A stretch of DNA of 24,599 nucleotides from a virus. Positions 1,512-15,883 of the stretch are shown here, piece by piece. Each line of letters opens with the position of its first letter. Positions within the stretch are counted from its first letter, which is position 1. The position numbers were made by a program, and so were the translations under genes. The notes under the pieces were generated by a model. That model saw only the letters and a program-made list of their open reading frames with translations, ran no database searches and had not been told where the DNA came from. The stretch covers positions 1 through 24,599 of the IMG/VR virus record IMGVR_UViG_3300017739_000108, one strand, 5' to 3'.

Positions 1512-2231
1512 ATGGAAACTAACGTATCGCTAGGCGATATCTGGGAAACCCTTTACCCAGTTAAGTGCGGAGATGCCGCAAAGAAAAAGAACGGGCTAAC
1601 CTATCTGCCTTGGAACGAGGCTTGGCGTCTGTTGATGAATCATTACCCCACCGCTCATTTTGAGTTTGGTGAGATAGAGATGCACAGTGACGGCTCGCAA
1701 ACTATTCACTGCACAGTGGCTATCGAAGGCCACGCCCGTCATATGTGGTTGCCTGTGATGAACTACAAGAATCAAGCGATTGCCAATCCAAGCGCCCGTG
1801 ATGTGAGCGACACAAAGATGCGCTGCTTAGTTAAGACCATCGCTATGTTTGGACTAGGCTTTCACATATTCCAAGGGCAGGTGCAGCCAGAAGATACTTG
1901 GGACGATGTCACTGAAGAAGCTGTGGAAGAAAAGCCACCAGCTAAAAAGCCAGCGGCAAAAAAACCAGATCCAGAGCCAGAGGCTGACGGTGAGGAAGAG
2001 GAGTTTTATCTCAGCTTTGACACTGAAGGTGCCGATGTATGGGTAGACATGATGATCTCAACGGTTGAGGGCATGGTGGAAACGAAGAAGGGATTACGAA
2101 GCATGTGGGAGGCAAACAAGAAAGCTGTCGATCACATACAGGCTAAGTTCCCAGAATCTTATAGCAGACTTGCAGCGGCAATGAAGGCCAAGCAAGACGA
2201 ATTCAACAACAAGGACAAAGCTAATGACTAG
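1512..2231 (+). CDS. Single-strand annealing protein, Sak3/DUF1071 type
   Basis: Predicted phage recombinase of 239 aa that anneals complementary single strands, working with an exonuclease and an SSB. The N-terminal 130 residues carry the hallmarks of the Sak3/DUF1071 family: a TYLPWNEAW block at 30-38, the strand block WLPVMNYKNQAI at 79-90, and a conserved block containing MRCLVKTIAMFGLG at 103-116. A Lys/Pro- and then Glu-rich linker (about 137-165) separates it from a helical C-terminal region (166-239), a layout common in such proteins where the tail recruits partners. AGGAG at 1501-1505 lies 6 nt before ATG 1512. The 3' end overlaps the SSB-like gene by 8 nt. The family call is from recalled motifs, not a search. 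Confidence 0.82.
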   Translation: METNVSLGDIWETLYPVKCGDAAKKKNGLTYLPWNEAWRLLMNHYPTAHFEFGEIEMHSDGSQTIHCTVAIEGHARHMWLPVMNYKNQAIANPSARDVSDTKMRCLVKTIAMFGLGFHIFQGQVQPEDTWDDVTEEAVEEKPPAKKPAAKKPDPEPEADGEEEEFYLSFDTEGADVWVDMMISTVEGMVETKKGLRSMWEANKKAVDHIQAKFPESYSRLAAAMKAKQDEFNNKDKAND

Positions 2232-2926: not shown

Positions 2927-3320
2927 TATCAAGGGCGCTGGTGTTGGGGAGATACTGGGGCCGATATGCGCCCTAGTTCCCAACCGCAGCACTGAGATCA
3001 TGGAGTTGTTCTTGAAATGCAAGAAGGGCTTGGTGATTGAACTAAAGCCTGTGCAGAAGAGCAGAAGCAGGAATCAAGAAAGCTATTACCGCAAATGGTG
3101 TAACAGCTTTGCGGATCACTGCGGCATGACACCCGATGAGATGCATGAAGAGATGCTATGCATAACTTTCGGTAGCGAGGAGGTTCAGACTAGGTTTGGG
3201 CCTAGACGCAGGGCTGTGAAGCGTAGCGGTGAAACCAGCGTAATAACATATGCACGGTTAATAGATAACCTTATAAATACCGCAGCGGAAATGGGATTCA
3301 AGATCCCAACACCAAGATGA
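2916..3320 (+). CDS. NinB-like recombination protein
   Basis: Protein of 134 aa resembling the NinB/Orf family of lambdoid phages, which bind single-stranded DNA and help recombinases load or replace RecFOR functions. The visible signature is a basic beta-strand region (LVIELKPVQKSRSRNQ, with RNQ at 52-54). An aromatic/Trp helix (ESYYRKWCNSFADHCG) follows, then a TPDEMHEEMLCITFG block and a C-terminal segment ending TAAEMGFKIPTPR. The assignment rests on overall pattern and context (adjacent to nuclease, Sak3-like and SSB-like genes), so it is moderate. The start ATG 2916 overlaps the upstream gene by 11 nt. The 3' end overlaps the endonuclease gene by ATGA at 3317-3320. Confidence 0.58.
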   Translation: MRLDIKGAGVGEILGPICALVPNRSTEIMELFLKCKKGLVIELKPVQKSRSRNQESYYRKWCNSFADHCGMTPDEMHEEMLCITFGSEEVQTRFGPRRRAVKRSGETSVITYARLIDNLINTAAEMGFKIPTPR

Positions 3321-3733
3321 GGCCTACATACGAAACCGATGAGGACATCAAGTACGAATCGCATGTTGCTGATGTGTTTGCCACCAATCACAGGATGCAA
3401 TGGGTAAGGAATCCACCAAAGTACCCGATAGACATTAGCTTTAGGCGAGGGCCAGATATTGTTTTGTTTGCTGAAATCAAGTGCCGAAAGGTGAAGAAGG
3501 ATGTCTACGAAACCTACATGATATCGGCGTCCAAGGTTATAGCGGCTAAGGCTTTGACTGATGCAACTGGGCTTTCTTGTATATTGATTGTGAAATGGAA
3601 AGATCAGGCTGGGTGGATTAACTTCAAAGAAAAGCCAAACAGTGTCGGTTTTGGTGGGCGCGTTGATCGCGGTGACAACCAAGACATGGAGCCAGTGGTG
3701 TACTACGATATTGACAGATTCAAAGAGGTTTAA
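3317..3733 (+). CDS. Second PD-(D/E)XK endonuclease (resolvase/VRR-NUC-like)
   Basis: Compact 138-aa predicted nuclease. It shows the PD-(D/E)XK core: YPIDI with Asp39, then LFAEIKCRK with Glu53 and Lys55. Downstream are YETYMISASKVIAAKAL and the strand CILIVKWKD, typical of small phage nucleases of the VRR-NUC or Holliday-junction-resolvase group. Such enzymes trim or resolve branched DNA. It begins at ATG 3317 with a 4-nt ATGA overlap of the NinB-like gene, so it probably completes the recombination module. The same frame continues open for 27 codons after TAA 3731-3733. No slip or readthrough signal is apparent, so the product is taken to end at residue 138. The exact subfamily is not determined. 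Confidence 0.75.
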   Translation: MRPTYETDEDIKYESHVADVFATNHRMQWVRNPPKYPIDISFRRGPDIVLFAEIKCRKVKKDVYETYMISASKVIAAKALTDATGLSCILIVKWKDQAGWINFKEKPNSVGFGGRVDRGDNQDMEPVVYYDIDRFKEV

Positions 3734-4926: not shown

Positions 4927-5067
4927 ATCGAAAATGTGCCGTTTGGAAAGATCACAGACGAAGATAATCGGCTTAGCAAAACCTTTACTGTCCGAGCAAA
5001 TGTCCGAGCAGGTCAGAAACTGCACACCAAAACAGACAAGCTAAACAAGCTACAGAAGCGACGATAG
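4879..5067 (+). CDS. TVEEFLARGGK-motif small protein B, 62 aa
   Basis: Tandem paralogue of the preceding gene. It starts at ATG 4879 as MNDKETVEEFLARGGKIENV, with the shared KETVEEFLARGGK at 4-16. The remainder diverges (VPFGKITDEDNRL, then a basic C-terminus rich in Lys and Arg, ending KLQKRR). It includes a 12-nt in-frame near-duplication (VRANVRAG). The last 18 nt overlap the 3' end of the giant minus-strand gene in a convergent arrangement. As with copy A, no function is known to me. The motif and basic tail suggest a short protein that binds nucleic acid or another protein. Confidence 0.66.
   Translation: MNDKETVEEFLARGGKIENVPFGKITDEDNRLSKTFTVRANVRAGQKLHTKTDKLNKLQKRR
4989..5010 (+). repeat. 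10-bp direct repeat, 12-bp period
   Basis: TGTCCGAGCA occurs at 4989-4998 and again at 5001-5010, separated by 2 nt. It produces the in-frame VRANVRAG pattern in protein B. It may be a small tandem duplication. Confidence 0.6.
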
Positions 5068-8000
5068 TCTATTTGCTATGCTCTCAGTAGCTGTTGGCAG
5101 TTTGAGATGTCTTTTTATTGATGGAACAACCTGTAAGTAATATTGCTCCTGCAAATTAACCATCCTCATGTACTCTTGCTTTTGCTCTGCTGTTAGGTCG
5201 GCTTTTAGAATATCTCTTCTTTCTTTTCTGAGCTTAGCAAGAGCATTTGCCGTATCCTGCAAAGCTTCTTTAGCACCAATGAACTGCCTTCGACCAATAA
5301 GGAATGCTTGAAGCTCGTCCATGCGACCATCTTCTTGTAGTTTTTTGGCTGTAGCCTCTGTTCTTTTTACAAAGTCATATAGTTCGTAAAAGTCTTCTTT
5401 ATACCCACCGCCAAACTCTGAACCAAAGAAACGTCTTATCACAGGTTTTTGAGTCAGATCCGTTCCAGCCAGTAGATTTCGATTGTCTCCTTGAACAGGG
5501 ACACCAAGTATACTGTTCGATCTTAACGCTACATCCATTAGTGTTATGGCGTAAGACCCAATAGTCCCTCCATATCCACGCATTAAGTGATCAATATTTA
5601 TTGGGCTTGTTCCGGTGATTGTAGCAAGTCTTTTTGCAAACTCAGTAGTTGATGAAAGCTCTTGAAATTGAGGTTCATTGCTTGACTCAACGTACACAGG
5701 AATAACTGGTCTGCCTGTGTAAAGGTCGTGATTCATAACTACTTCAAGAAGAGGAGCCGCCGCTTGAGGAATAGGCGTAAAACCAAGAGTCCCAACAACC
5801 GCTCGTAAAGCAGACTGCTGAGCTTCTCTGGCTGTAGTGCCGCCGTTGTATGAGTCAATTATTCGCTCAGGCAGTGTCTTAAACAACAAACCAACCTCAA
5901 ACGGGATTGGGATCCGAACTGGTACGCCTGATGATGTTGGGAATATCCAGAAGTTATCTTTTATTTCTTCTGTCTGATTCTTGTATTGTTCGTCATCACT
6001 AAATAACCCGTAATAAAGGGCTGTAGCCCCTACAAGCAAACCTCCTCTTGCAAACGCACTTGCAGCAGCCTGTCCTCTAGAAAACTCCCTATTTGCACTG
6101 CTCTTACCTGTAAGGCCTCTGTATAAAACATCCAAGCCTTGTATTCTAGCGTTCAAAAACGGGATTGTTGATGCTGCTGTTCTTACTATCGGGCTGCTAC
6201 CTCTTCGACCAAAGTTCAAAACCTCCATAGCTTGGAAGTGAGCCTCGGCTTCGTTGCCTGTGCGAGCTAATACATCGTTGTATACAGCATTTCTTGTTGC
6301 TGCATCAGACTTGGTAGTTAAAGACCCAAGACCATCCCAAAGCTTTGTCCCGTACTTGATTACAAAGTTTCGATTGTCAGTAACTTGATTTGTGTCTCTA
6401 AGAATTTTTTGTGCAAACTTCCCAATGTTATCTGGATCATTCTTGTAGTCGTACCCACCAACGACACCGCTGCGCTCAAGTTTTTCCATCCCATCAGCAA
6501 AGCCAAGAAAAGTGTCTACCATTGGCGTAAAGCTAGATCCTGACGTTACAAACGCAGATAGAGAGTCCCTGATCATATTGGCTATGATAAATCCGGGTTC
6601 TCTGGTAACCATTTCTCTCAAGAAACGAGCGGGAATACCAGCATACTCAGTGATGAGCATTTCAACAGAACCAGCCGGGGCAATGGTCAACGACTCATAT
6701 ATTAACGGGTCATCTATTATGAATTTACGACGATCACCGCCAACCTTAAAAGTAACTACAGCTTCGCCAGTGGTTCTTTGTCCCGGCTTGACCTCTCTTG
6801 CAAGGCCAAGATTTCTCATGTCTCTGACTATTCGCTGCTGAGCAACATTCTTCATGCCCATGCTTATGGCGGCGTTGAGGTTCATTGCTATTGCTTCTAA
6901 AAGAGGCACGTTTATTTCTTTGGTGCTTCCTTTAATCGCCTTAAGATCCTGACTTGCAGTTAATCCACCAAATACATTTGGCGCGTTTGGAACATCTGAC
7001 CCTTCGACTTGTCGGTAAAACGGTACATAATCAGATTGGTCTTGCCATAACTGGGCGGTTTCAGCGTCTAAAATCCCTGTGTCTTTTAAGAACTGAACGG
7101 TATGCCCATTGTAATCCTGCCAAGCGTCGTACCAGTCTTTAATGATTGAGTTGCCGTCTTTATCTAAAAATGACTCTGCTGTTTTTATGTTCTCCGCATG
7201 CTGTGCTGGGGTTCCGGGTACTTCAATGCCCCTTGCTCGCAATCTTTCAGATCGCCTAGCTATTGAGTAAGCCTGAGCTATTTGTTCTAAAGACCCATGC
7301 TCTTTTGTGTAGAGCATAGCCATAAGCTCTATTAACCCGCGAAACTTTTTAGTCTCTCCTCTGCTGTTTGTGTGTTCAAAGTCAGCAATTGTTGTAAGAC
7401 CGCCTGTGTAAACAGGAACGCCGTACTTGAGCGCGGCGGCTGTCACTGCAGTTGAACGATCAGCAAACAATGCTGCTGACAAAGCAGAAGAGTCAGCAAG
7501 CATGTTGCCAGAAACACCCTTATAGTTTTCTAACTGAGCATATCTATTAACGGCTTTTTGTTTAGATGCAGTTAAAGATTTTCCAATTGGCCCTTGATCA
7601 AGGACGTTTAGCATTGTTTGACCGGGAGTGCTGGTCGGCAACTCGGCAACTACACCATCTAGCGCAGATTGTGCCGCAGGACTTATTTCTGGAGTGTTTG
7701 CCCTAGAGAACATGACTTCTTCACTAGGAGAAAGCCTTTGCCCTTTGTCTGGGTCAGCGGCAACTGCTTGTGCATATGGATCTGCGGCAGGATTAAAAGG
7801 CGGTATAACACCTACTGATCGGTTTTCAGCGACCTCTAAGTTGTCTTGTACAACACGATCAACTTCGCTTTGACCAATTACTTTCTTACGCTTGTATTTA
7901 TCAAGCAAGTCAAATGGCAGACCTACGTCTTCATCCGGTATCGGTCTGGCAGCATTGCTTCCTCTTCCGCGCCCAGTGGCTGACTCGGATCTCGGTCTGG

Positions 8001-11000
8001 ATACGCCGCTATCAGGTAGTTTTTTCTCGTAAGTGGCCGCTTCATCGCCTTCAGGTATCCCTCCACTGGATCGCTCCCAATCTGGCGGGTTGATGTCTTG
8101 CGCGTGTTCATAAACAGCCTCTCTTGCCTGATCCAAGGTTATTAGTTTCTTATTGTACTGTTTCCATATATTGTCTACAACGTCCACATTACTCTGTTGG
8201 GACTTGTACTCTGGTCGGAATAAACCTCTGACAGCCTCCCATGTAATAGACTGCATCTCTCTGGGCAACACGCCACGCTCATTAGCAGCACGACGATATC
8301 CTTCCTCATACAGGGAATACACGCCGTTCAGGCCAGTAATCTTGGATGACGAACCTTTTGTGCCAAAGTTATGAGACACCTCAAACGCACTGCCACCCAA
8401 AGGCTTGAGTAATCCAGCAGCAACAGCGTGAGTATCTATAGTGACAAAGCCCAAGTCTGAGTCTGGGTCAAATATGTTGTTATAGAAGTTTCTAACTTTG
8501 TTGGCGCTTCCTAGTGATTCGGATATGGCGTCAATGTCTGGATTTTGTAGGGCGCGAACACCCTTTGCTATTTCTACTAACGAACCCCAAGCAACCTTGG
8601 AGTTGCTGCCGTCAGCGTTTTTTGCGTAATCCAGCAGTCTGCCGTCAGGCGAAACAATTCTGTAGCTAGGATCGTGGTAAGTCTGGTCAAACGTCCTTAT
8701 CCACATGGCAGCTAACGTGTCGCCAAGCCCCGGCTCGTTAAACTTACGCAAAATTTCGCTCAAAGTGTTTGATCCAATCAACTCAAGTCTTACTCTGTTT
8801 TCTGCTTGAGCTTCCGCGCTTATCCCTTTGTGAAAGAATAATTCTTCCGCTCGGTCTTTCATTGCTTGAGTGAATGGTTGATTTGCGTGATCAAAATAAA
8901 TGTCTATTGTGCGCTCAGCCAGCGATGCGTTTTGATACCAGTCTTTTTGCGGCGACAAATTAGCTGCAACAGCAGATGCCTGCTCCATAGATATGCCGTG
9001 CCGTTCTGCAAAGCGCCCGACTAAGGCGTTAGCACCCTTGTACCAAAGCTTAGAGTTTTCCCTAGTCTCCGCTGGAACCCTGTCAAAGAGATTCAACAGG
9101 TTGTTCTTGACTGCTTCGACAAACGCTTCGGCTTTCTGCTCATTAGTTCGCAGGTTGGCTGCTTTTTGAAGTATCGGATAAAGCTTGGAGTCTTTGATTA
9201 GCTCCATGTTCTTGTTGAACACGGTCTTATCGTTCACAAAGGTTTGATAATCATTGACCAGCAAATCATCAAGAGGGTCTTCTGTGCGCCTTGCTGCCGT
9301 TGGATACCTTGTGCTGACGTTGCCCTGTATACCCCCTTGCTCTGGCGCTCTGCGAGAATACAAAGTTTCAAACTGCTCACCAGTCGGCGATATGCTTTTC
9401 AAAGCATTCTTGGCTAATACTAGAGGGCCAACCTGTATTACTTCATCAGCAAAAGTTACAGGCTCACCAGTTGACCTATCGTAGAAATACGAATGCCTTC
9501 TGGGATCAAACCCTACTTGAATCCAATCAGGAGAATTTATAAACGATTCTGCTAGGTTTGCCGTTTCTTCGGGGCTTCTGTTTACAAAGTCGCCCATGAT
9601 TTGAGCAAACGGAAACTTGTTTTTGCCTTCCATAACGGAACGAGCGTCTTCTTGAAGGTTTTTAGGATCTTTCCCCGTCCTTTCTCTAAGCATGGTGAAG
9701 TCAGCATTTTTTATTGATGCTGTAGCCATGTGAGATATCGACTTACCTTTCTGATCGTGAATTGTTGGCACCCAAGTGCCAAAGTTTTTGTATGCGTTTA
9801 TATCTAATCTAAGGCCAACGCGAGATCCATCGGGAACCTCTGCATTTATTTTGTCTTTTTGGCTTTGAACGGCTAAAGCCTCAAACATCTCATCTGTAGT
9901 AGCTGGCTCTGGAACAAAGTCGTAAGGCTGAATAGTGCCCAAAACAACTGAGTCATACTGTTCTCTAGTGAACTCTCCTGTTTGAAGCTTTGCATAAGCA
10001 TTAGCAACTTCTTCTTTTAACGCAGTGTCTGGAGCGCCTACAGCCCTTCTGCTGAAGTCAGGCACAGATTGCCCAGAACTAGCAGGTATGTCACGCTCTG
10101 CATCTTCGCCTGTCGTAACAACAACACCTTGGCTTCGCAGCTTGTTTATTTCAGCCTGCAAATCTCTAGACGCTTTCTTTTCTGTCTGAGTAAGTGTTCG
10201 TATTTGATCGCGTTGCCTAGCGCCAATTTCTCCAGACCCTATTGCCTCAAATACTTCACTAAAGGTATTAAATTTTTCACCTTTAAGGGCTGAAACCATA
10301 TTTCTAAGAAATCTAACTACTCGCTCAACTAATGACTTAGGCTTGCCTTGAAGAAGTTTGGGGTCTTCTTTTGTTCTTCTTACTAACTCAGCAACGGACT
10401 CCTCTGCTATTGCAACCTTGGAAAATCCAGCATAAGTGCTTTCTGCCCACCTCAAGAATGTTTGAGGGTTGCCTTCTTTGTCTCGCACTGTTGGGTGTAT
10501 TTTTCTGCTTGCTGCACCAGAAAGAAGGCTCCACTCTTTGTTCGTGAACAGGTCAAGGTTACGCATAGCGTGGATCATTTCGTGATCCAGTATTTCTAGC
10601 AATGCAGCCTCTACTTGAGCCTCAGTCATAGACGGATCTGACATGACGCTGTCTATTGACAAGAAAATAGTGTTCAAGCCGCTATCGTAATAACCCTCGG
10701 CCAAGCCCTCTGGGTCAATTTCATCATCCCTTACAAACTGAGTTCTAGGATCTCTCTGTCTAGCTGCTTCGCCACCAATGACCATTGCATCGGCATCTCC
10801 AGCTTGTCTGCGTCTTACTCCATAAACAAGATTGCCGTTAGCGTCTTTTGCTGCTGTCCTTAAGGCGTAATCAAGGCTTAGCCCTACATCACTTAGCCCA
10901 AAACCTTTCATTACCCTATTTATGGCTCTGCGTAATCTGTCTACGTTGACTGAGGGCGCAGGCAAGGCTAAGACTTCGGTTTCTTGCTCTACAACAGGCT

Positions 11001-13680
11001 CTGCCTCAACAACTGGAGCAGCCTGCACATCTTGCTTGGCTAGATCTGCTCTTAGATCGCTTAGGGCAGCAGCGCCTTGCTGCGTTGTTGGGTTGATGCC
11101 AGTGGCATTAGCAAGAACGACCTCGCCTGCGTCAGGAGTTTGTTGCAACGTCTTTGATGCTGCACGGAACTGAGCGCCTGTGTACTTGGGCAGCTTGAAG
11201 GTGGGAAGCTTTGTGGGCTTGTCGAAGCGTGGCAGTGATCTGAGCTTTTGGTACAACAACCTAGACTCAGCCAATGACAAATCATTTACCGACTTGATGG
11301 TCTTTTTGCCTAGTATTCTGCTCGCAAGGTACTTGACCTCAGGAGATCCAACCTTTGATGTGATGTTTTTAGCTTTGAGAAGCTGCTCCATCTCTTGGAA
11401 GTTAGCGTCAACATTACGCATGACACCTTTCTCAACAGCAGCCTTACCTGTGCGGTTGTTGAGTTGGTTTGCATAAACTCTAGCGTCGGCCTCTGTCTTA
11501 AACTTAACAAGCTTAGGCGGCTTCTTCTTAGGGTTTGCTTTGATTGCATCGTCTTTTTCTAGGGTAGTCAGCGGCCTGCCTTGCAGGATCTCACCAGCAC
11601 TGCTTCTTACGACTGGGTTGTTGTTTGCGCTTAACCCAGCCCTATACGTTTCAGTCTCAGGTAAACCATTTACCCGTGTATCGCTAAGATTGTATAGCTG
11701 GTCTTCTTTAAGGACGCTTCTGACTTCTTGAATGGTAAACGTATTTGTTACTGGCAGACCTTGACGCAGACGCTTGGCGTTTATGCGCTGAGATGCGGTC
11801 ATTTTGCTTGGGCCAACCCTGTCTTGCATCAACACATTAACGTCGGCTGTTTCATCAAAACCACGGTCTTGCGTTGTCTCGGCTGCGCTGTCTACGGCAA
11901 CTGAGCTATATGTGTTTGAGTCAGGATGGTTTGCAGCAAAGTTGTAGGACTGCAACGAGGATTCTTGATCGGCATCGTATGATTCTGGCGATGATGTAAT
12001 TACTGCGTCACCAGCAGAGAACACGTTGTCATTAATCATTTCATCGTTAAGGAACCCAGCAAGAGCAAATGCATCTTCGGAGTTCTGTAAAGGCACACCG
12101 TATTGCTGCCCGTTGCTATCTTCTACGGTGAAGACTGGCACACCTTCGGGATCAAGCTGGGTAGTGCTGACACCCTCACCGCCAAAGTCTTCTGGCAACT
12201 TAACAGTGAACGTATTGTCGGCTGATGGGAAGTTGTCGCCCATTGTTTGGCGAATTGATTGTGCATATGCAAGCATTGGTTGCTTGGGATATCTGCGCTG
12301 TATGCCCTCAGTAGGCTGTGCAACTGTAGTAATTTGGAATCCAGACAGTTGTGGCTGTCCATTCACAGATGTAACAATCTCGCCGCCTCCGGGGGCTTCA
12401 ACGTAGGCTGTGACAGTCTCTGTCGGCTTGCCTTTGTCCCTTACTCTAAACTTCTCTTCTGCTTGAAATGACTCGCCATTGGGGGCAGTCAACGTGATTA
12501 TTCTTGATGGCGTTTTAAGCTTAGATGTGAGCGCCCTGCCTGTAGGAGGGGCTATCTGAGATGGGTCTATTGGTGCCTCACCAGCAGCCCTACGAGCTTC
12601 ATTTGCAGCTTGACGGTCAGCGGCTGCTTGAGCGTCTATTTCTGCTTGTGCTGCTAGATCGCCAGCAAGCGCCCTCTGCCTAATATCTTGAGCATCCTGC
12701 AAGTCCTCTCTAAGCTTGCCTTCAGCCTCTTCTGCGGCCTTAAAGGCTCCTTTGTTGCGCCTACCAGCCACAGCGTTGAGCACAAGGTCTGCACCCGCAC
12801 CGACAGCACCGCCAATGGTAAAGTCATCCATCAGGTTGCCGCCGCCTATCTCTAAGGCTTCATTGTATTGACCTTGCTCAATGGCGTCTTGGGCTATGCT
12901 TGCAGCAACTTCCTGTATACCCTCAGTGCTGCCTGAGCGTAAGGCAGATCCAAGCCTTTCTTTTATTCCAGATGGTAGTTTTCCAGCAGATTCCAAACCC
13001 TTAAGTCTATTAAGAAGTCTTTGAGGAACAATAAGCTCAGACAAACCAACACCGCCACCAAGCAAAACAGATAAGTCTTCTTCGTCTTGCGAGACATCTA
13101 ACCCTGAGTCACGGGCCGCTTGTATTCTTTGAGCTTGATCACCAGCACCCGTACCCACAGCCAAAGCCCCGGTAGCGCCAATCTCAGCAACCTTTGCTGC
13201 TTTTGCTGCTGATATGCCTTTACCTGCCATACCTGCAAGCTTTATTGCTCCAGCAGGGGTAAAGAATGAGGCAAACGAACCAACACCTTCGCCAAACTTA
13301 GTGAGCCATTGATCTCTGTAAGCAAGATCAGCGCCCATCGCTTCGTCAATCGCTGCACGGCCTTCTCTAGCAGCAAGAACTAGGTCGTTCTCATCGCCGC
13401 TATCTATTAAGTCCTCAAGGCCTACTGCGTTAGTGCCAGCATCAGCAAGCTCTGCTAAGCCCTCACCAGCAGACAAGAATGCATTGGCAAAGCCACGACC
13501 TATTCCTTTGGCAGTCTCAAAGGCTTGACCTGATACAGTTCTTTCATCCTCAAATGGATCAAAGCCTAGCTCATCGGCTGTTATTACATTGCCGCCTATT
13601 AGTTTTTGAGCAAGCTCTTTTTTCCCAATATCATCTGGGACATCGCTAATAATAAGACCGTTGGGAAGTTGTACATCCAT
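5050..13680 (-). CDS. Giant polyvalent internal virion protein, 2876 aa
   Basis: Very long multidomain protein resembling phage polyvalent (DarB-like) proteins that are packaged and injected with the DNA. Residues 1-35 resemble a short N-terminal motif of other virion proteins (MDVQLPNGLIISDVPDD). Residues about 60-240 are hydrophobic and Gly/Ala-rich. About 310-365 are an Ala/Glu coiled coil. HEMIH at 1033-1037 is an HExxH zinc metallopeptidase motif, with Glu1049 a possible further ligand. About 1283-1430 match a conserved domain of other polyvalent proteins (VGFDPRRHSYFYDRSTGEP). About 1530-1765 contain KVRNFYNN at 1728-1735 and TIDTHA at 1747-1752, the latter reminiscent of an HhH-GPD glycosylase VDTH motif. 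About 2010-2720 resemble LPD38, with a hydrophobic segment near 2538-2557. Domain names are recalled, not searched. Three FSR/YSR linkers (1209, 1441, 1991) separate regions. It is the last gene of the leftward cluster, overlapping the plus-strand operon by 18 nt. Its ribosome site is weak. Confidence 0.82.
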   Translation of the reverse strand: MDVQLPNGLIISDVPDDIGKKELAQKLIGGNVITADELGFDPFEDERTVSGQAFETAKGIGRGFANAFLSAGEGLAELADAGTNAVGLEDLIDSGDENDLVLAAREGRAAIDEAMGADLAYRDQWLTKFGEGVGSFASFFTPAGAIKLAGMAGKGISAAKAAKVAEIGATGALAVGTGAGDQAQRIQAARDSGLDVSQDEEDLSVLLGGGVGLSELIVPQRLLNRLKGLESAGKLPSGIKERLGSALRSGSTEGIQEVAASIAQDAIEQGQYNEALEIGGGNLMDDFTIGGAVGAGADLVLNAVAGRRNKGAFKAAEEAEGKLREDLQDAQDIRQRALAGDLAAQAEIDAQAAADRQAANEARRAAGEAPIDPSQIAPPTGRALTSKLKTPSRIITLTAPNGESFQAEEKFRVRDKGKPTETVTAYVEAPGGGEIVTSVNGQPQLSGFQITTVAQPTEGIQRRYPKQPMLAYAQSIRQTMGDNFPSADNTFTVKLPEDFGGEGVSTTQLDPEGVPVFTVEDSNGQQYGVPLQNSEDAFALAGFLNDEMINDNVFSAGDAVITSSPESYDADQESSLQSYNFAANHPDSNTYSSVAVDSAAETTQDRGFDETADVNVLMQDRVGPSKMTASQRINAKRLRQGLPVTNTFTIQEVRSVLKEDQLYNLSDTRVNGLPETETYRAGLSANNNPVVRSSAGEILQGRPLTTLEKDDAIKANPKKKPPKLVKFKTEADARVYANQLNNRTGKAAVEKGVMRNVDANFQEMEQLLKAKNITSKVGSPEVKYLASRILGKKTIKSVNDLSLAESRLLYQKLRSLPRFDKPTKLPTFKLPKYTGAQFRAASKTLQQTPDAGEVVLANATGINPTTQQGAAALSDLRADLAKQDVQAAPVVEAEPVVEQETEVLALPAPSVNVDRLRRAINRVMKGFGLSDVGLSLDYALRTAAKDANGNLVYGVRRRQAGDADAMVIGGEAARQRDPRTQFVRDDEIDPEGLAEGYYDSGLNTIFLSIDSVMSDPSMTEAQVEAALLEILDHEMIHAMRNLDLFTNKEWSLLSGAASRKIHPTVRDKEGNPQTFLRWAESTYAGFSKVAIAEESVAELVRRTKEDPKLLQGKPKSLVERVVRFLRNMVSALKGEKFNTFSEVFEAIGSGEIGARQRDQIRTLTQTEKKASRDLQAEINKLRSQGVVVTTGEDAERDIPASSGQSVPDFSRRAVGAPDTALKEEVANAYAKLQTGEFTREQYDSVVLGTIQPYDFVPEPATTDEMFEALAVQSQKDKINAEVPDGSRVGLRLDINAYKNFGTWVPTIHDQKGKSISHMATASIKNADFTMLRERTGKDPKNLQEDARSVMEGKNKFPFAQIMGDFVNRSPEETANLAESFINSPDWIQVGFDPRRHSYFYDRSTGEPVTFADEVIQVGPLVLAKNALKSISPTGEQFETLYSRRAPEQGGIQGNVSTRYPTAARRTEDPLDDLLVNDYQTFVNDKTVFNKNMELIKDSKLYPILQKAANLRTNEQKAEAFVEAVKNNLLNLFDRVPAETRENSKLWYKGANALVGRFAERHGISMEQASAVAANLSPQKDWYQNASLAERTIDIYFDHANQPFTQAMKDRAEELFFHKGISAEAQAENRVRLELIGSNTLSEILRKFNEPGLGDTLAAMWIRTFDQTYHDPSYRIVSPDGRLLDYAKNADGSNSKVAWGSLVEIAKGVRALQNPDIDAISESLGSANKVRNFYNNIFDPDSDLGFVTIDTHAVAAGLLKPLGGSAFEVSHNFGTKGSSSKITGLNGVYSLYEEGYRRAANERGVLPREMQSITWEAVRGLFRPEYKSQQSNVDVVDNIWKQYNKKLITLDQAREAVYEHAQDINPPDWERSSGGIPEGDEAATYEKKLPDSGVSRPRSESATGRGRGSNAARPIPDEDVGLPFDLLDKYKRKKVIGQSEVDRVVQDNLEVAENRSVGVIPPFNPAADPYAQAVAADPDKGQRLSPSEEVMFSRANTPEISPAAQSALDGVVAELPTSTPGQTMLNVLDQGPIGKSLTASKQKAVNRYAQLENYKGVSGNMLADSSALSAALFADRSTAVTAAALKYGVPVYTGGLTTIADFEHTNSRGETKKFRGLIELMAMLYTKEHGSLEQIAQAYSIARRSERLRARGIEVPGTPAQHAENIKTAESFLDKDGNSIIKDWYDAWQDYNGHTVQFLKDTGILDAETAQLWQDQSDYVPFYRQVEGSDVPNAPNVFGGLTASQDLKAIKGSTKEINVPLLEAIAMNLNAAISMGMKNVAQQRIVRDMRNLGLAREVKPGQRTTGEAVVTFKVGGDRRKFIIDDPLIYESLTIAPAGSVEMLITEYAGIPARFLREMVTREPGFIIANMIRDSLSAFVTSGSSFTPMVDTFLGFADGMEKLERSGVVGGYDYKNDPDNIGKFAQKILRDTNQVTDNRNFVIKYGTKLWDGLGSLTTKSDAATRNAVYNDVLARTGNEAEAHFQAMEVLNFGRRGSSPIVRTAASTIPFLNARIQGLDVLYRGLTGKSSANREFSRGQAAASAFARGGLLVGATALYYGLFSDDEQYKNQTEEIKDNFWIFPTSSGVPVRIPIPFEVGLLFKTLPERIIDSYNGGTTAREAQQSALRAVVGTLGFTPIPQAAAPLLEVVMNHDLYTGRPVIPVYVESSNEPQFQELSSTTEFAKRLATITGTSPINIDHLMRGYGGTIGSYAITLMDVALRSNSILGVPVQGDNRNLLAGTDLTQKPVIRRFFGSEFGGGYKEDFYELYDFVKRTEATAKKLQEDGRMDELQAFLIGRRQFIGAKEALQDTANALAKLRKERRDILKADLTAEQKQEYMRMVNLQEQYYLQVVPSIKRHLKLPTATESIANRLSSLL

Positions 13681-13690
13681 TACTTTGACC

Positions 13691-15883
13691 CTATGGGGTA
13701 GGGATAGAGTTAAATGACATCACCCCTCCGGGGGTAGCTTTTTGCGCTGCCGCTGTGACTGTATCAACTGGACTAGCAAAAACAGAAGACATATCAACCC
13801 CTTGTTCACTGGCAAGTCTTTGTATAAGCGCATTTCTTTGAGCTATATATTCCGGGCTTTGTTTGTAAAGAGTTTTGCCGTCTGGGCCTTGAGCGCCTTC
13901 CATTAGCTTGTCAGCTATTTCAACTATTCTTTTTTGCTCTAAACTCAAACTTGCCGTTGAGCTTTTTTGAGCAAGAGACTGATAATATTCTTGCCTTATA
14001 GCTCTGTCACGGGCCTTCTCACGCACATCTTGTGCAGCAACGCCAGCCTTAGAAAGACCTTCTGCAAAGTCCCCCTTAGCGATACCAGCACCAAGCTGTA
14101 TCAGGGCAGCGCCTAAAGCCTCCTTCTTGGCTAAGTCTTCTTTGGTAATCAGCCCATCTTGACGGGCTTTTCTAGCGTCTGCTATGTATTGATCAGCCTG
14201 TTGTTGTGCTGTTTGCACTGTTTTCTGATCGTCATCGCCCGGCTGAGCGTCCGGTTGAACGCCCTGTTGAGCGTTCAGTGCAATGTTTGCTTCAGCTAAA
14301 TCTTGCTGTTCTTGACTAATGTTTGGATTCTGACGTATCTCAGCAATTCGTCTGTTTCTTTTAGCCTGATCTCTTCTTGCCTTTCTGGTTAAACCAGTGC
14401 GTTCTTTTTCTTCAACAGCTTCTTTCTCATCAGGGGCTGCTTGAGCCGCAAGCATTTTCTTCGTAGTAGAGTCTTTTTCGGCTTGTATTCTAGCCATCTC
14501 CTCTGCTGATTTACGCTTTCCTGTAATTAATCCACCAAGAATTGATATATCACCTTCATCAGCAGCGGGCATCTGTTGCGGACTGGTTAACAAGTTCATC
14601 CTTTCTGTCACAGAGGTGCTTGAGTCTCCAATCGCTTGTGCAGATTGCTGGAGTAAAGCTAAAGACGCTGATATGTCACCAGCAGGAGGCCTAACCTTGT
14701 CTTGTGGCTGCGCCTTCAGAGCATCCTCAACGATTGCTGATACAGGTCGGTTGTCTGTAGTGATAAGTCCCTTCGTATCAACCTTAGTCTCTTCAGCCAG
14801 CCGTATAACGTCCCCCGGCTCGCTGCCAGTGGGTTGTCGCATTGTTTGAGGTAGTGCGCCATCTAGCTCAGGAAGCCTTGATACGGCCCCCTGACGGCTT
14901 TGAGGCGCAACGTCTGGGGTCTGCCTGTCACCGAATGTAGCGGCCATTAGCTCATCTGGGCTTTGTGGGCCGCTTTGTGGAATCGGAGCGTCAAATACCT
15001 CTTCAGTGGTTACCCGTGTCTCTCGCTGCTGAGGCATAGGTATGTTCATTTCTGGCAACTGAACCTCTGGCACAAGAGGTCTTAGTTCTTGTCGAGGCGC
15101 ATTGGCCATCTCAATCATCTCGGTTATCTGACCGGGACTGTACTCAGACCTAGACTCCATCATAGCCATTGGTGACAAGATTCTTGCTCTCATCTCAGGA
15201 TCTGAAAGGTCAACCTCTGCGTCAGGGTCTATACCAAGCTGACCAGATATGTAGTTGACGTAATTACTTGTATCGTTTTCTGAGGGAGGAGCAAATCTGT
15301 TGATTAGACCACGGATAGTGTTTATTCCGCGCTTTGTGCCGTAGGTGGTAAGCACTTTGTCGGCAGCACGAACCCCATACATTGGGTCATCAAAGCTTAC
15401 AAATCCTGAATCTTCGCCTGATTCCCCAAGAAAACCTTGGTCATACTGCCTGATGTTGTATGGATTGTTTATTCTCTGGCCAATAATAGATGACTGCGGC
15501 GGGGTTTGATCCATAGGGAATGTGGCTTGCCTGCCTTCTGCCATACGGACTACGCCACCTTCAAACATTCCTTGTGGGGCCATAGGCTGCTGCATAGGCT
15601 GCTGCATAGGGGGCTGCATAGGCATTCTTTGAGGCATGGGTTGCTGACCCGGAGGCACCATAGCGCCTATACCTTGCTGCTGAGGCGCAACTATTTGCTG
15701 AGCAACAGTACCTTGAGGCTGTGGCTGTCTAGACTCAAAACGCTTACGCATGTCAGTCCTGCGCTGAATCTCGCTTACAACAAGAAACTGCGGCAACTGT
15801 GGATTAGGTCTTTGAGCTAACTGCTGTAACGCCTGATCTGGAAGACCTTTTACGTCATCCTCTAGCTGAATTAGGTTTTGCAT
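13691..15883 (-). CDS. Internal virion protein with lysozyme-like domain, 730 aa
   Basis: Large virion-type protein. The N-terminus (about 1-55) is Gln/Leu-rich. Residues 59-105 are Pro/Met/Gln-rich with MQQP tandem repeats. The GGVV motif follows at about 109-112 (MFEGGVVRMAEGR). Residues about 137-242 form a domain with INNPYNIRQYDQGFLG, FVSFDDPMYGVRA and INRFAPPSENDTSNYVNYI. This pattern recurs in phage virion peptidoglycan hydrolases and lysozyme-like structural proteins, sometimes annotated structural protein P5, and would help the particle open the cell wall during DNA entry. The remainder is disordered Gln/Pro/Glu-rich linker and coiled coil. A short small-residue helical segment (ALGAALIQLGAGIAKGDFAE, about 588-613) precedes the tail. 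The start is ATG 15883 with AGAGGA about 6 nt upstream. It lies 10 nt before the giant gene. Confidence 0.72.
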   Translation of the reverse strand: MQNLIQLEDDVKGLPDQALQQLAQRPNPQLPQFLVVSEIQRRTDMRKRFESRQPQPQGTVAQQIVAPQQQGIGAMVPPGQQPMPQRMPMQPPMQQPMQQPMAPQGMFEGGVVRMAEGRQATFPMDQTPPQSSIIGQRINNPYNIRQYDQGFLGESGEDSGFVSFDDPMYGVRAADKVLTTYGTKRGINTIRGLINRFAPPSENDTSNYVNYISGQLGIDPDAEVDLSDPEMRARILSPMAMMESRSEYSPGQITEMIEMANAPRQELRPLVPEVQLPEMNIPMPQQRETRVTTEEVFDAPIPQSGPQSPDELMAATFGDRQTPDVAPQSRQGAVSRLPELDGALPQTMRQPTGSEPGDVIRLAEETKVDTKGLITTDNRPVSAIVEDALKAQPQDKVRPPAGDISASLALLQQSAQAIGDSSTSVTERMNLLTSPQQMPAADEGDISILGGLITGKRKSAEEMARIQAEKDSTTKKMLAAQAAPDEKEAVEEKERTGLTRKARRDQAKRNRRIAEIRQNPNISQEQQDLAEANIALNAQQGVQPDAQPGDDDQKTVQTAQQQADQYIADARKARQDGLITKEDLAKKEALGAALIQLGAGIAKGDFAEGLSKAGVAAQDVREKARDRAIRQEYYQSLAQKSSTASLSLEQKRIVEIADKLMEGAQGPDGKTLYKQSPEYIAQRNALIQRLASEQGVDMSSVFASPVDTVTAAAQKATPGGVMSFNSIPTP
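15582..15617 (-). repeat. 12-bp tandem repeat encoding MQQP
   Basis: Two exact copies of ATAGGCTGCTGC (15582-15593 and 15594-15605) are followed by a third with two mismatches (15606-15617). They encode the Pro/Met/Gln-rich stretch of the 730-aa protein and can expand or contract in frame. Confidence 0.75.

What the first reader, a model, noticed from the sequence alone, without database searches (positions are those of the whole stretch)
5050..13680. 2876-aa polyvalent protein combining a HEMIH peptidase motif, a glycosylase-like region and an LPD38-like domain
One gene occupies about a third of the window. It reads as a mosaic: N-terminal hydrophobic region, HExxH motif at residues 1033-1037, a conserved polyvalent-protein domain (about 1283-1430), a TIDTHA/KVRNFYNN region (about 1530-1765) and an LPD38-like region (about 2010-2720). 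Such polyvalent proteins are known to be injected and to act in the host. The particular combination may be undescribed. Domain limits and the glycosylase resemblance are by eye.
Basis: partly seen in the sequence, partly recalled or inferred. Interest (0 to 1): 0.72.

Follow-up and report, generated by a model that had tools for sequence, protein, structure and literature searches.

The report
Phage cargo protein with swappable modules
This giant phage protein is a fixed frame with a built-in protein-cutting enzyme and interchangeable cargo domains; nearly every joint carries the same tiny peptide (F/Y-S-R), which looks like the cut site that would free each cargo domain when the phage infects a bacterium.

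Summary
The 2876-aa gene is real and conserved (31 relatives found from the whole protein; 571 relatives of its C-terminal part).

The more important finding was missed. Relatives that are 70-90% identical at both ends carry different middles, built by shuffling discrete cassettes: DUF7178, ADP-ribosyltransferase, ASCH and five uncharacterised ones. Of 83 cassette junctions in 21 architectures, 69 carry [FY]SR and 9 a variant. FSR and SRR are the two most over-represented tripeptides in the variable region. The motif is not enriched in the N-terminal frame or peptidase, is absent from neighbouring virion proteins, and is written with different codons at different joints. Giants with a divergent peptidase carry K(A/F)SLR at the equivalent joints; a Rhodobacteraceae phage giant carries (L/M)FQ.

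Best explanation: an ejected, self-processing polyprotein whose peptidase cuts at the seams and frees the cargo modules. Cleavage and injection are inferred. Polyvalent proteins are known; I found no earlier description of the seam code.

The parts
5050..13680 (-). giant polyvalent protein gene, 2876 aa
   Evidence: ORF; 31 relatives in viral contigs
10894..13680 (-). N-terminal frame, residues 1-929, with Gly/Ala-rich hydrophobic stretches; 76-92% identical in close relatives
   Evidence: no Pfam match
10057..10713 (-). zincin-like metallopeptidase, about residues 990-1208
   Evidence: alignment A5, model pLDDT 82, structural matches LF protease domain, PPEP-1, ArdC
10570..10584 (-). HEMIH active-site motif, residues 1033-1037; further invariant Glu at 1093/1094
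   Evidence: H, E, H and EE invariant in 60 sequences
10048..10056 (-). seam 1: FSR, residues 1209-1211 (codons TTC AGC AGA)
   Evidence: recombination breakpoint at 1209; in a pLDDT<50 linker
9361..10047 (-). cassette A, residues 1212-1440 (phrog_586-like; relatives in Roseobacter phages and podophage ctYwJ313, in the latter in a separate protein close to the portal gene)
9352..9360 (-). seam 2: YSR, residues 1441-1443 (codons TAT TCT CGC)
7888..9351 (-). cassette B, residues 1444-1931: DUF7178, HhH-GPD glycosylase-like
   Evidence: Pfam, structural matches, conservation
8497..8499 (-). invariant Lys1728 (GSANK), candidate Schiff-base lysine
   Evidence: 73 of 73 sequences
8434..8436 (-). invariant Asp1749 (TIDTH), candidate catalytic aspartate
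   Evidence: 73 of 73 sequences
7711..7887 (-). spacer, residues 1932-1990; in several relatives bounded by FSR on both sides as a 68-aa piece
7702..7710 (-). seam 3: FSR, residues 1991-1993 (codons TTC TCT AGG)
   Evidence: aligned seam is [FY]SR in most relatives
5053..7701 (-). C-terminal frame, residues 1994-2876
   Evidence: alignment A2; 571 relatives
5527..5994 (-). LPD38 domain, residues 2563-2718
   Evidence: Pfam PF18857, 3e-33
13691..15883 (-). upstream gene, 730 aa, with matches to phage endolysin / tail injection transglycosylase families; ends 10 bases before the giant gene
   Evidence: phrog_873 5e-40, phrog_7182 8e-11

Best explanation
A short-tailed phage's ejected cargo polyprotein that processes itself. 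A fixed N-terminal frame carries a zincin metallopeptidase and a fixed C-terminal frame carries LPD38. Between them sit one to several interchangeable effector cassettes; here these are cassette A and a DUF7178 glycosylase-like cassette. Each junction is a disordered linker with the peptide [FY]SR, which I propose the peptidase on the same chain recognises and cuts, during virion maturation or after entry, freeing the cassettes as separate proteins. Shown: fixed frames, cassette exchange, the motif at junctions, its protein-level conservation and its change with peptidase lineage. Inferred: that the motif is cut, that this peptidase cuts it, and that the protein is packaged and injected.
For: Frames 70-92% identical while the middle is replaced between relatives. 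83 junctions, 21 architectures: 69 exact [FY]SR, 9 variant only. SRR and FSR rank first and second of all tripeptides by z-score in variable regions. [FY]SR in N frame 5 (7.9 expected), peptidase 3 (3.2), variable part 88 (14.7). At >=80% identity, 48% of exchange breakpoints lie within 12 aa of a motif versus 7% by chance. Different codons for the motif at different seams, including the three in this window. None in the neighbouring structural proteins of this window or of the seven relatives checked, apart from one antisense ORF seen in two of them. Both seams inside the model lie at pLDDT <50. Peptidase site strictly invariant, zincin structural matches. Giants with a divergent peptidase but LPD38 frame carry K(A/F)SLR at the equivalent seams (SLR 20 seen, 3.1 expected); the Rhodobacteraceae phage LS06 giant carries (L/M)FQ ahead of its ART, methyltransferase and DUF7178 parts. 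Gene follows a transglycosylase-type virion gene and a sister record has SU10-type portal and adaptor genes.
Against: No cleavage or proteomic data. A short linear motif could be a docking or packaging signal rather than a cut site. The C-terminal frame also has more [FY]SR than expected (47 versus 14.3), partly an in-domain NFSRRG of LPD38. Five of 83 junctions have no motif or variant. DUF7178 giants of other lineages show no clear repeated seam, so this is not universal. The LFQ case rests on one protein and the SLR case on four related ones. Motif score follows similarity of the C frame almost as well as that of the peptidase (rho 0.51 versus 0.59), so co-variation may partly be shared ancestry.
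Confidence: 0.6

Rival explanations
1. The seams are cut, but by another enzyme: a host protease met during entry (the common SRR resembles the dibasic sites of omptins) or a phage maturation protease. The zincin would have another target, such as a host protein.
For: SRR is the single most over-represented tripeptide. P22 gp20 may need cleavage by a host enzyme (PMC8954989).
Against: The constant part is [FY]SR; the next residue varies (A, R, T, N, V, E, K, G, S). No motif in the neighbouring virion proteins, so nothing suggests a general maturation site. Seam motif changes with peptidase lineage.
Confidence: 0.17
2. The motif is a docking or packaging signal, or a structural linker element, and the protein acts as one uncut chain.
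For: Plasmid polyvalent proteins such as the TraC1 primase move as full-length chains (PMC5512222). No cleavage data.
Against: A repeated docking site does not explain why nearly every independently moving cassette carries its own copy, why the motif lies in disordered linkers, or why it changes with peptidase lineage.
Confidence: 0.15
3. The seam is mainly a relic of recombination: a short shared DNA sequence where cassettes are exchanged, with no peptide function.
For: Exchange breakpoints cluster at the seams; short direct DNA repeats occur at seams in L006 and L010.
Against: The DNA differs between seams of one gene (TTC AGC AGA, TAT TCT CGC, TTC TCT AGG in this window) and about 20 SR codon pairs are used across relatives. 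Selection therefore acts on the peptide.
Confidence: 0.06
4. Ordinary mosaic polyvalent protein; the motif enrichment is inflated by shared ancestry of a few related sequences.
For: Many junctions are homologous copies; I first saw the motif by eye before testing it.
Against: The unbiased ranking counted only distinct sequence contexts (FSR 26 versus 6.7 expected), and the motif recurs in 21 different cassette orders.
Confidence: 0.02

Closest known systems
Polyvalent proteins of phages and plasmids (Iyer et al. 2017, PMC5512222)
   Same: Giant chain joining unrelated activities, zincin peptidase, LPD38 and ADP-ribosyltransferases among the parts, coded next to virion genes; self-processing by the peptidase had been proposed there in general terms.
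   Different: That paper's main text has no match for 'FSR' or 'linker'. A shared, lineage-specific peptide at nearly every cassette joint, beside a strictly conserved peptidase, and a DUF7178 cassette are added here.
jhp1044-type mosaic polyvalent proteins of Helicobacter prophages (PMC5512222)
   Same: Extensive domain shuffling between orthologues.
   Different: There, duplications and rearrangements of PBECR/ParB domains; here a fixed frame with a defined cargo slot and seam motif.
Polymorphic toxin systems (PMC3482391)
   Same: Fixed delivery part, exchangeable toxin cassettes, often with processing peptidases.
   Different: Toxins are exchanged at the C-terminus with immunity genes; here cargo is exchanged in the middle, several at a time, between two fixed ends.
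N4-type virion RNA polymerase (PMC5512222, PMC10925440)
   Same: Giant virion-associated protein with an HExxH zincin domain.
   Different: No polymerase domain detected here; I know of no exchangeable cargo region with seams in it.
HhH-GPD DNA glycosylases (EndoIII-3, AGOG, OGG1)
   Same: Best structural matches of the DUF7178 part; K...(V/I)DTH residues at similar spacing.
   Different: No detectable sequence-profile relation to cellular members.

Membership tests
Polyvalent protein (Iyer et al. 2017) | several domains of unrelated activity in one chain | tested here: met
   zincin, cassette A, DUF7178 and LPD38 in one ORF
Polyvalent protein (Iyer et al. 2017) | gene in a virion structural context | tested here: met
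   follows phrog_873/7182 and phrog_3287 virion genes; sister record with terminase, capsid, SU10-type portal and adaptor
Polyvalent protein (Iyer et al. 2017) | delivered into the host with the DNA | not testable with these tools
   inference from gene position only
LPD38 (PF18857) | profile match above the curated cut-off | tested here: met
   115.9 bits, cut-off 27
DUF7178 (PF23802) | profile match above the curated cut-off | tested here: met
   94.4 bits, cut-off 27
Zincin metallopeptidase | HExxH helix and a third Glu ligand in a following helix, conserved | tested here: met
   H74 E75 H78 E134 E135 A138 are the only invariant columns in 60 sequences; both motifs lie in predicted helices
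Zincin metallopeptidase | zincin fold | tested here: inconclusive
   top matches are LF protease domain Z 5.7 and PPEP-1 Z 4.0, with ArdC Z 3.0 lower down; Z below 8. Foldseek alone found nothing significant
Zincin metallopeptidase | zinc binding and proteolysis | not testable with these tools
HhH-GPD DNA glycosylase superfamily | catalytic Lys/Asp around the helix-hairpin-helix | tested here: met
   K1728 and D1749 in 73 of 73 sequences
HhH-GPD DNA glycosylase superfamily | fold | tested here: inconclusive
   eight best structural matches are all HhH-GPD glycosylases, Z 5.1-6.5
HhH-GPD DNA glycosylase superfamily | sequence-profile match to PF00730 or cellular members | tested here: not met
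   no Pfam match; hhalign probability 0.4%. Therefore not filed as a member, only as glycosylase-like

The most novel reading that the evidence does not exclude
Phage cargo polyproteins use a peptidase-specific seam code: each peptidase lineage has its own short cut site ([FY]SR, K(A/F)SLR, (L/M)FQ), and any cassette becomes releasable cargo by acquiring that code at its ends. The seams would then allow cargo of uncultured phages to be read from sequence.
Probability: 0.45. Interest if true: 0.78.

Novelty: new variant of a known kind. Interest (0 to 1): 0.62.

Why it matters
Polyvalent proteins were proposed in 2017 to be processed by their own peptidases, but I found no cut sites described. 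This family offers explicit sites that can be tested with one expression construct and two point mutants. If right, the seams mark the borders of effector modules, so the cargo that phages carry into bacteria (ADP-ribosyltransferases, ASCH domains, glycosylase-like enzymes, unknown domains) can be listed from metagenomes, and the peptidases could serve as programmable release tools.

Tried and rejected
Cassette D (L010 1577-2071) looked by eye like a second glycosylase cassette (GPK...TMD); profile comparison with DUF7178 found no relation, so dropped. DUF7178 against cellular HhH-GPD proteins by profile: no relation. Sequence search of solved structures with peptidase, DUF7178 and C-frame profiles: no credible relative. 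Search for seam repeats in other DUF7178 giants: nothing clear, so the code is not claimed to be universal. Relatives of the LS06 and L157 peptidases in viral contigs and phage genomes: too few to test their motifs further. Recombination-relic explanation tested with codons and rejected. First breakpoint test with loose matches was noisy and was replaced by one using matches of >=60-80% identity. Genome collection: a single hit, in a MAG, so no host assignment. Several Foldseek hits for the two models (trichodiene synthase, ribosomal S7, and others) rejected as insignificant.

Full report
WHAT IS THERE. The window is a 24,599-base virus record from IMG/VR. One ORF, 5050-13680 on the - strand, codes for 2876 aa. 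Pfam finds LPD38 (residues 2563-2718) and DUF7178 (from 1515). The gene directly upstream matches phage endolysin and tail-injection transglycosylase families, and the 618-aa gene further upstream a virion structural family. A sister record of 59,971 bases has a terminase, a capsid gene and SU10-type portal and adaptor genes, so this is most likely a short-tailed phage with SU10-like head-tail parts, and the giant sits where ejection proteins usually lie (inference from general knowledge of podophage gene order). No nucleotide match exists among 50,697 phage records.

A FIXED FRAME WITH A CARGO SLOT. The full protein found 31 loci. Comparison showed an unusual pattern: residues 1 to about 1209 and about 1932 to 2876 are 70-92% identical in close relatives, but the middle is often unrelated. 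L009 lacks the first cassette, L004 has an extra one of about 430 aa, and L010 and L011 have quite different middles. Cutting the sequences at a recurring peptide gave discrete pieces that reappear in other orders. Identified cassettes: A (residues 1209-1440 here), B (DUF7178), ART-PolyVal (PF18760, 1.6e-15), ASCH (PF04266, 3.5e-4 in L010), two PHROG families of unknown function (30118 and 3170) and two without a significant match.

THE SEAM MOTIF. Most boundaries carry [FY]SR in a linker rich in acidic residues and proline, for example ESPAFSRRP. I first saw this by eye, so I tested it without choosing the motif. Ranking all tripeptides in the variable regions of 66 proteins, counting only distinct contexts, put SRR first and FSR second. 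Counts by region: N frame 5 (7.9 expected), peptidase 3 (3.2), variable part 88 (14.7), C frame 47 (14.3). Mapping eight cassette types onto the giants gave 83 junctions in 21 architectures: 69 exact, 9 with a variant only (such as SFARK, PFART, ASSRV, LSKRP), 5 with none. Independent exchange breakpoints (ends of matches at 80% identity or more) fall within 12 residues of a motif in 48% of cases, 7% expected. Related sequences are not independent, so these figures describe strength and are not exact probabilities.

THE MOTIF IS SELECTED AS PEPTIDE. In this window the three seams use TTC AGC AGA, TAT TCT CGC and TTC TCT AGG, and some twenty SR codon pairs occur across relatives. A recombination relic would share DNA. 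The motif is absent from the neighbouring virion proteins of this window, and the only hits in the relatives checked are in an antisense ORF. The two seams inside the structural model fall in stretches with pLDDT below 50, between better predicted domains.

THE PEPTIDASE. In 60 sequences down to about 22% identity the only invariant columns are H1033, E1034, H1037, E1093, E1094 and A1097. The model of residues 960-1150 (pLDDT 82) matches best the protease domain of anthrax lethal factor (Z 5.7) and PPEP-1 (Z 4.0), with ArdC lower (Z 3.0); the first eight rows are zinc metallopeptidases, a metal-dependent hydrolase, or another part of the same toxin. Z is below 8 and Foldseek alone found nothing significant, so the fold match is supportive, not proof. 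No relative of this peptidase region was found in the phage collection.

THE SEAM CHANGES WITH THE PEPTIDASE. Four giants (L156-L159) keep the LPD38 frame but have a divergent peptidase. They lack FSR seams and instead have SLR-type seams (KASLR, KFSLR, KPSLR) at the equivalent places: before DUF7178 in L158 and at the start of the C frame in all four (SLR 20 seen, 3.1 expected). The giant of Rhodobacteraceae phage LS06-2018-MD07, with a HEFTH peptidase motif, has (L/M)FQ ahead of its ART-PolyVal, methyltransferase and DUF7178 parts. Stand-alone DUF7178 proteins without HExxH have no such motif in front of the domain. This is what co-evolution of a peptidase and its cut sites would look like, but the alternative lineages are few, and similarity of the C frame tracks the motif nearly as well.

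THE DUF7178 CASSETTE. The eight best structural matches of residues about 1489-1871 are all HhH-GPD DNA glycosylases (DrEndoIII-3 Z 6.5, Pa-AGOG 6.1, OGG1 5.2). G1724, K1728, T1747, D1749, T1750 and H1751 are invariant or nearly so in 73 sequences, matching in order the hairpin lysine and VDTH aspartate of bifunctional glycosylases (general knowledge). Profile comparison with cellular HhH-GPD proteins found nothing. I call it glycosylase-like and do not file it as a member. The domain also occurs in stand-alone phage proteins and, in Roseobacter phage CRP-738, close behind the portal gene.

HOW IT LIKELY WORKS. The giant is made late with the virion proteins, is packaged (inferred), enters the cell with the DNA (inferred), and its peptidase cuts the disordered seams (inferred), releasing cargo enzymes that act on the host. 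Shown here: frame, cassette exchange, seam motif, peptide-level conservation, invariant peptidase site. A host protease, or a docking role for the motif, remain live alternatives.

WHAT IS KNOWN. Polyvalent proteins, their zincin peptidases, LPD38 and ART domains were described by Iyer et al. 2017, who proposed self-processing as one role of the peptidases (PMC5512222); the terms 'linker' and 'FSR' do not occur in the main text. Searches of the paper library found no mention of DUF7178 and no description of a seam motif. The library lacks most subscription papers and all bioRxiv preprints.

Noticed in passing
window 1512-2231, 3317-3733, 156-1034: Opposite-strand early genes: Sak-type single-strand annealing protein (PF06378, 2.8e-27), PDDEXK_14 endonuclease (2.5e-33) and PDDEXK_1 nuclease (2e-6).
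   Followed up: no
L170:701-2137 (-) of the sister record: DUF2201 gene pairing a putative metallopeptidase domain with a VWA-like domain in a phage genome.
   Followed up: no
L168:4873-7380 (Roseobacter phage CRP-738 gp40) and L172:5563-8547 (podophage ctYwJ313): Cassettes B and A of the giant occur as separate proteins close to the portal gene in other podophages, suggesting cargo moves between different delivery proteins.
   Followed up: partly
   Followed up: partly
L003:5382-6293, L004:14192-15478: Cassette with the motif VHDAFGHGIEGAG (phrog_3170, unknown function) recurs in several giants; a possible metal-binding enzyme.
   Followed up: no
L010:14705-16189: Cassette D, about 495 aa, no significant family match, often takes the place of DUF7178 just before the C-terminal frame.
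   Followed up: partly
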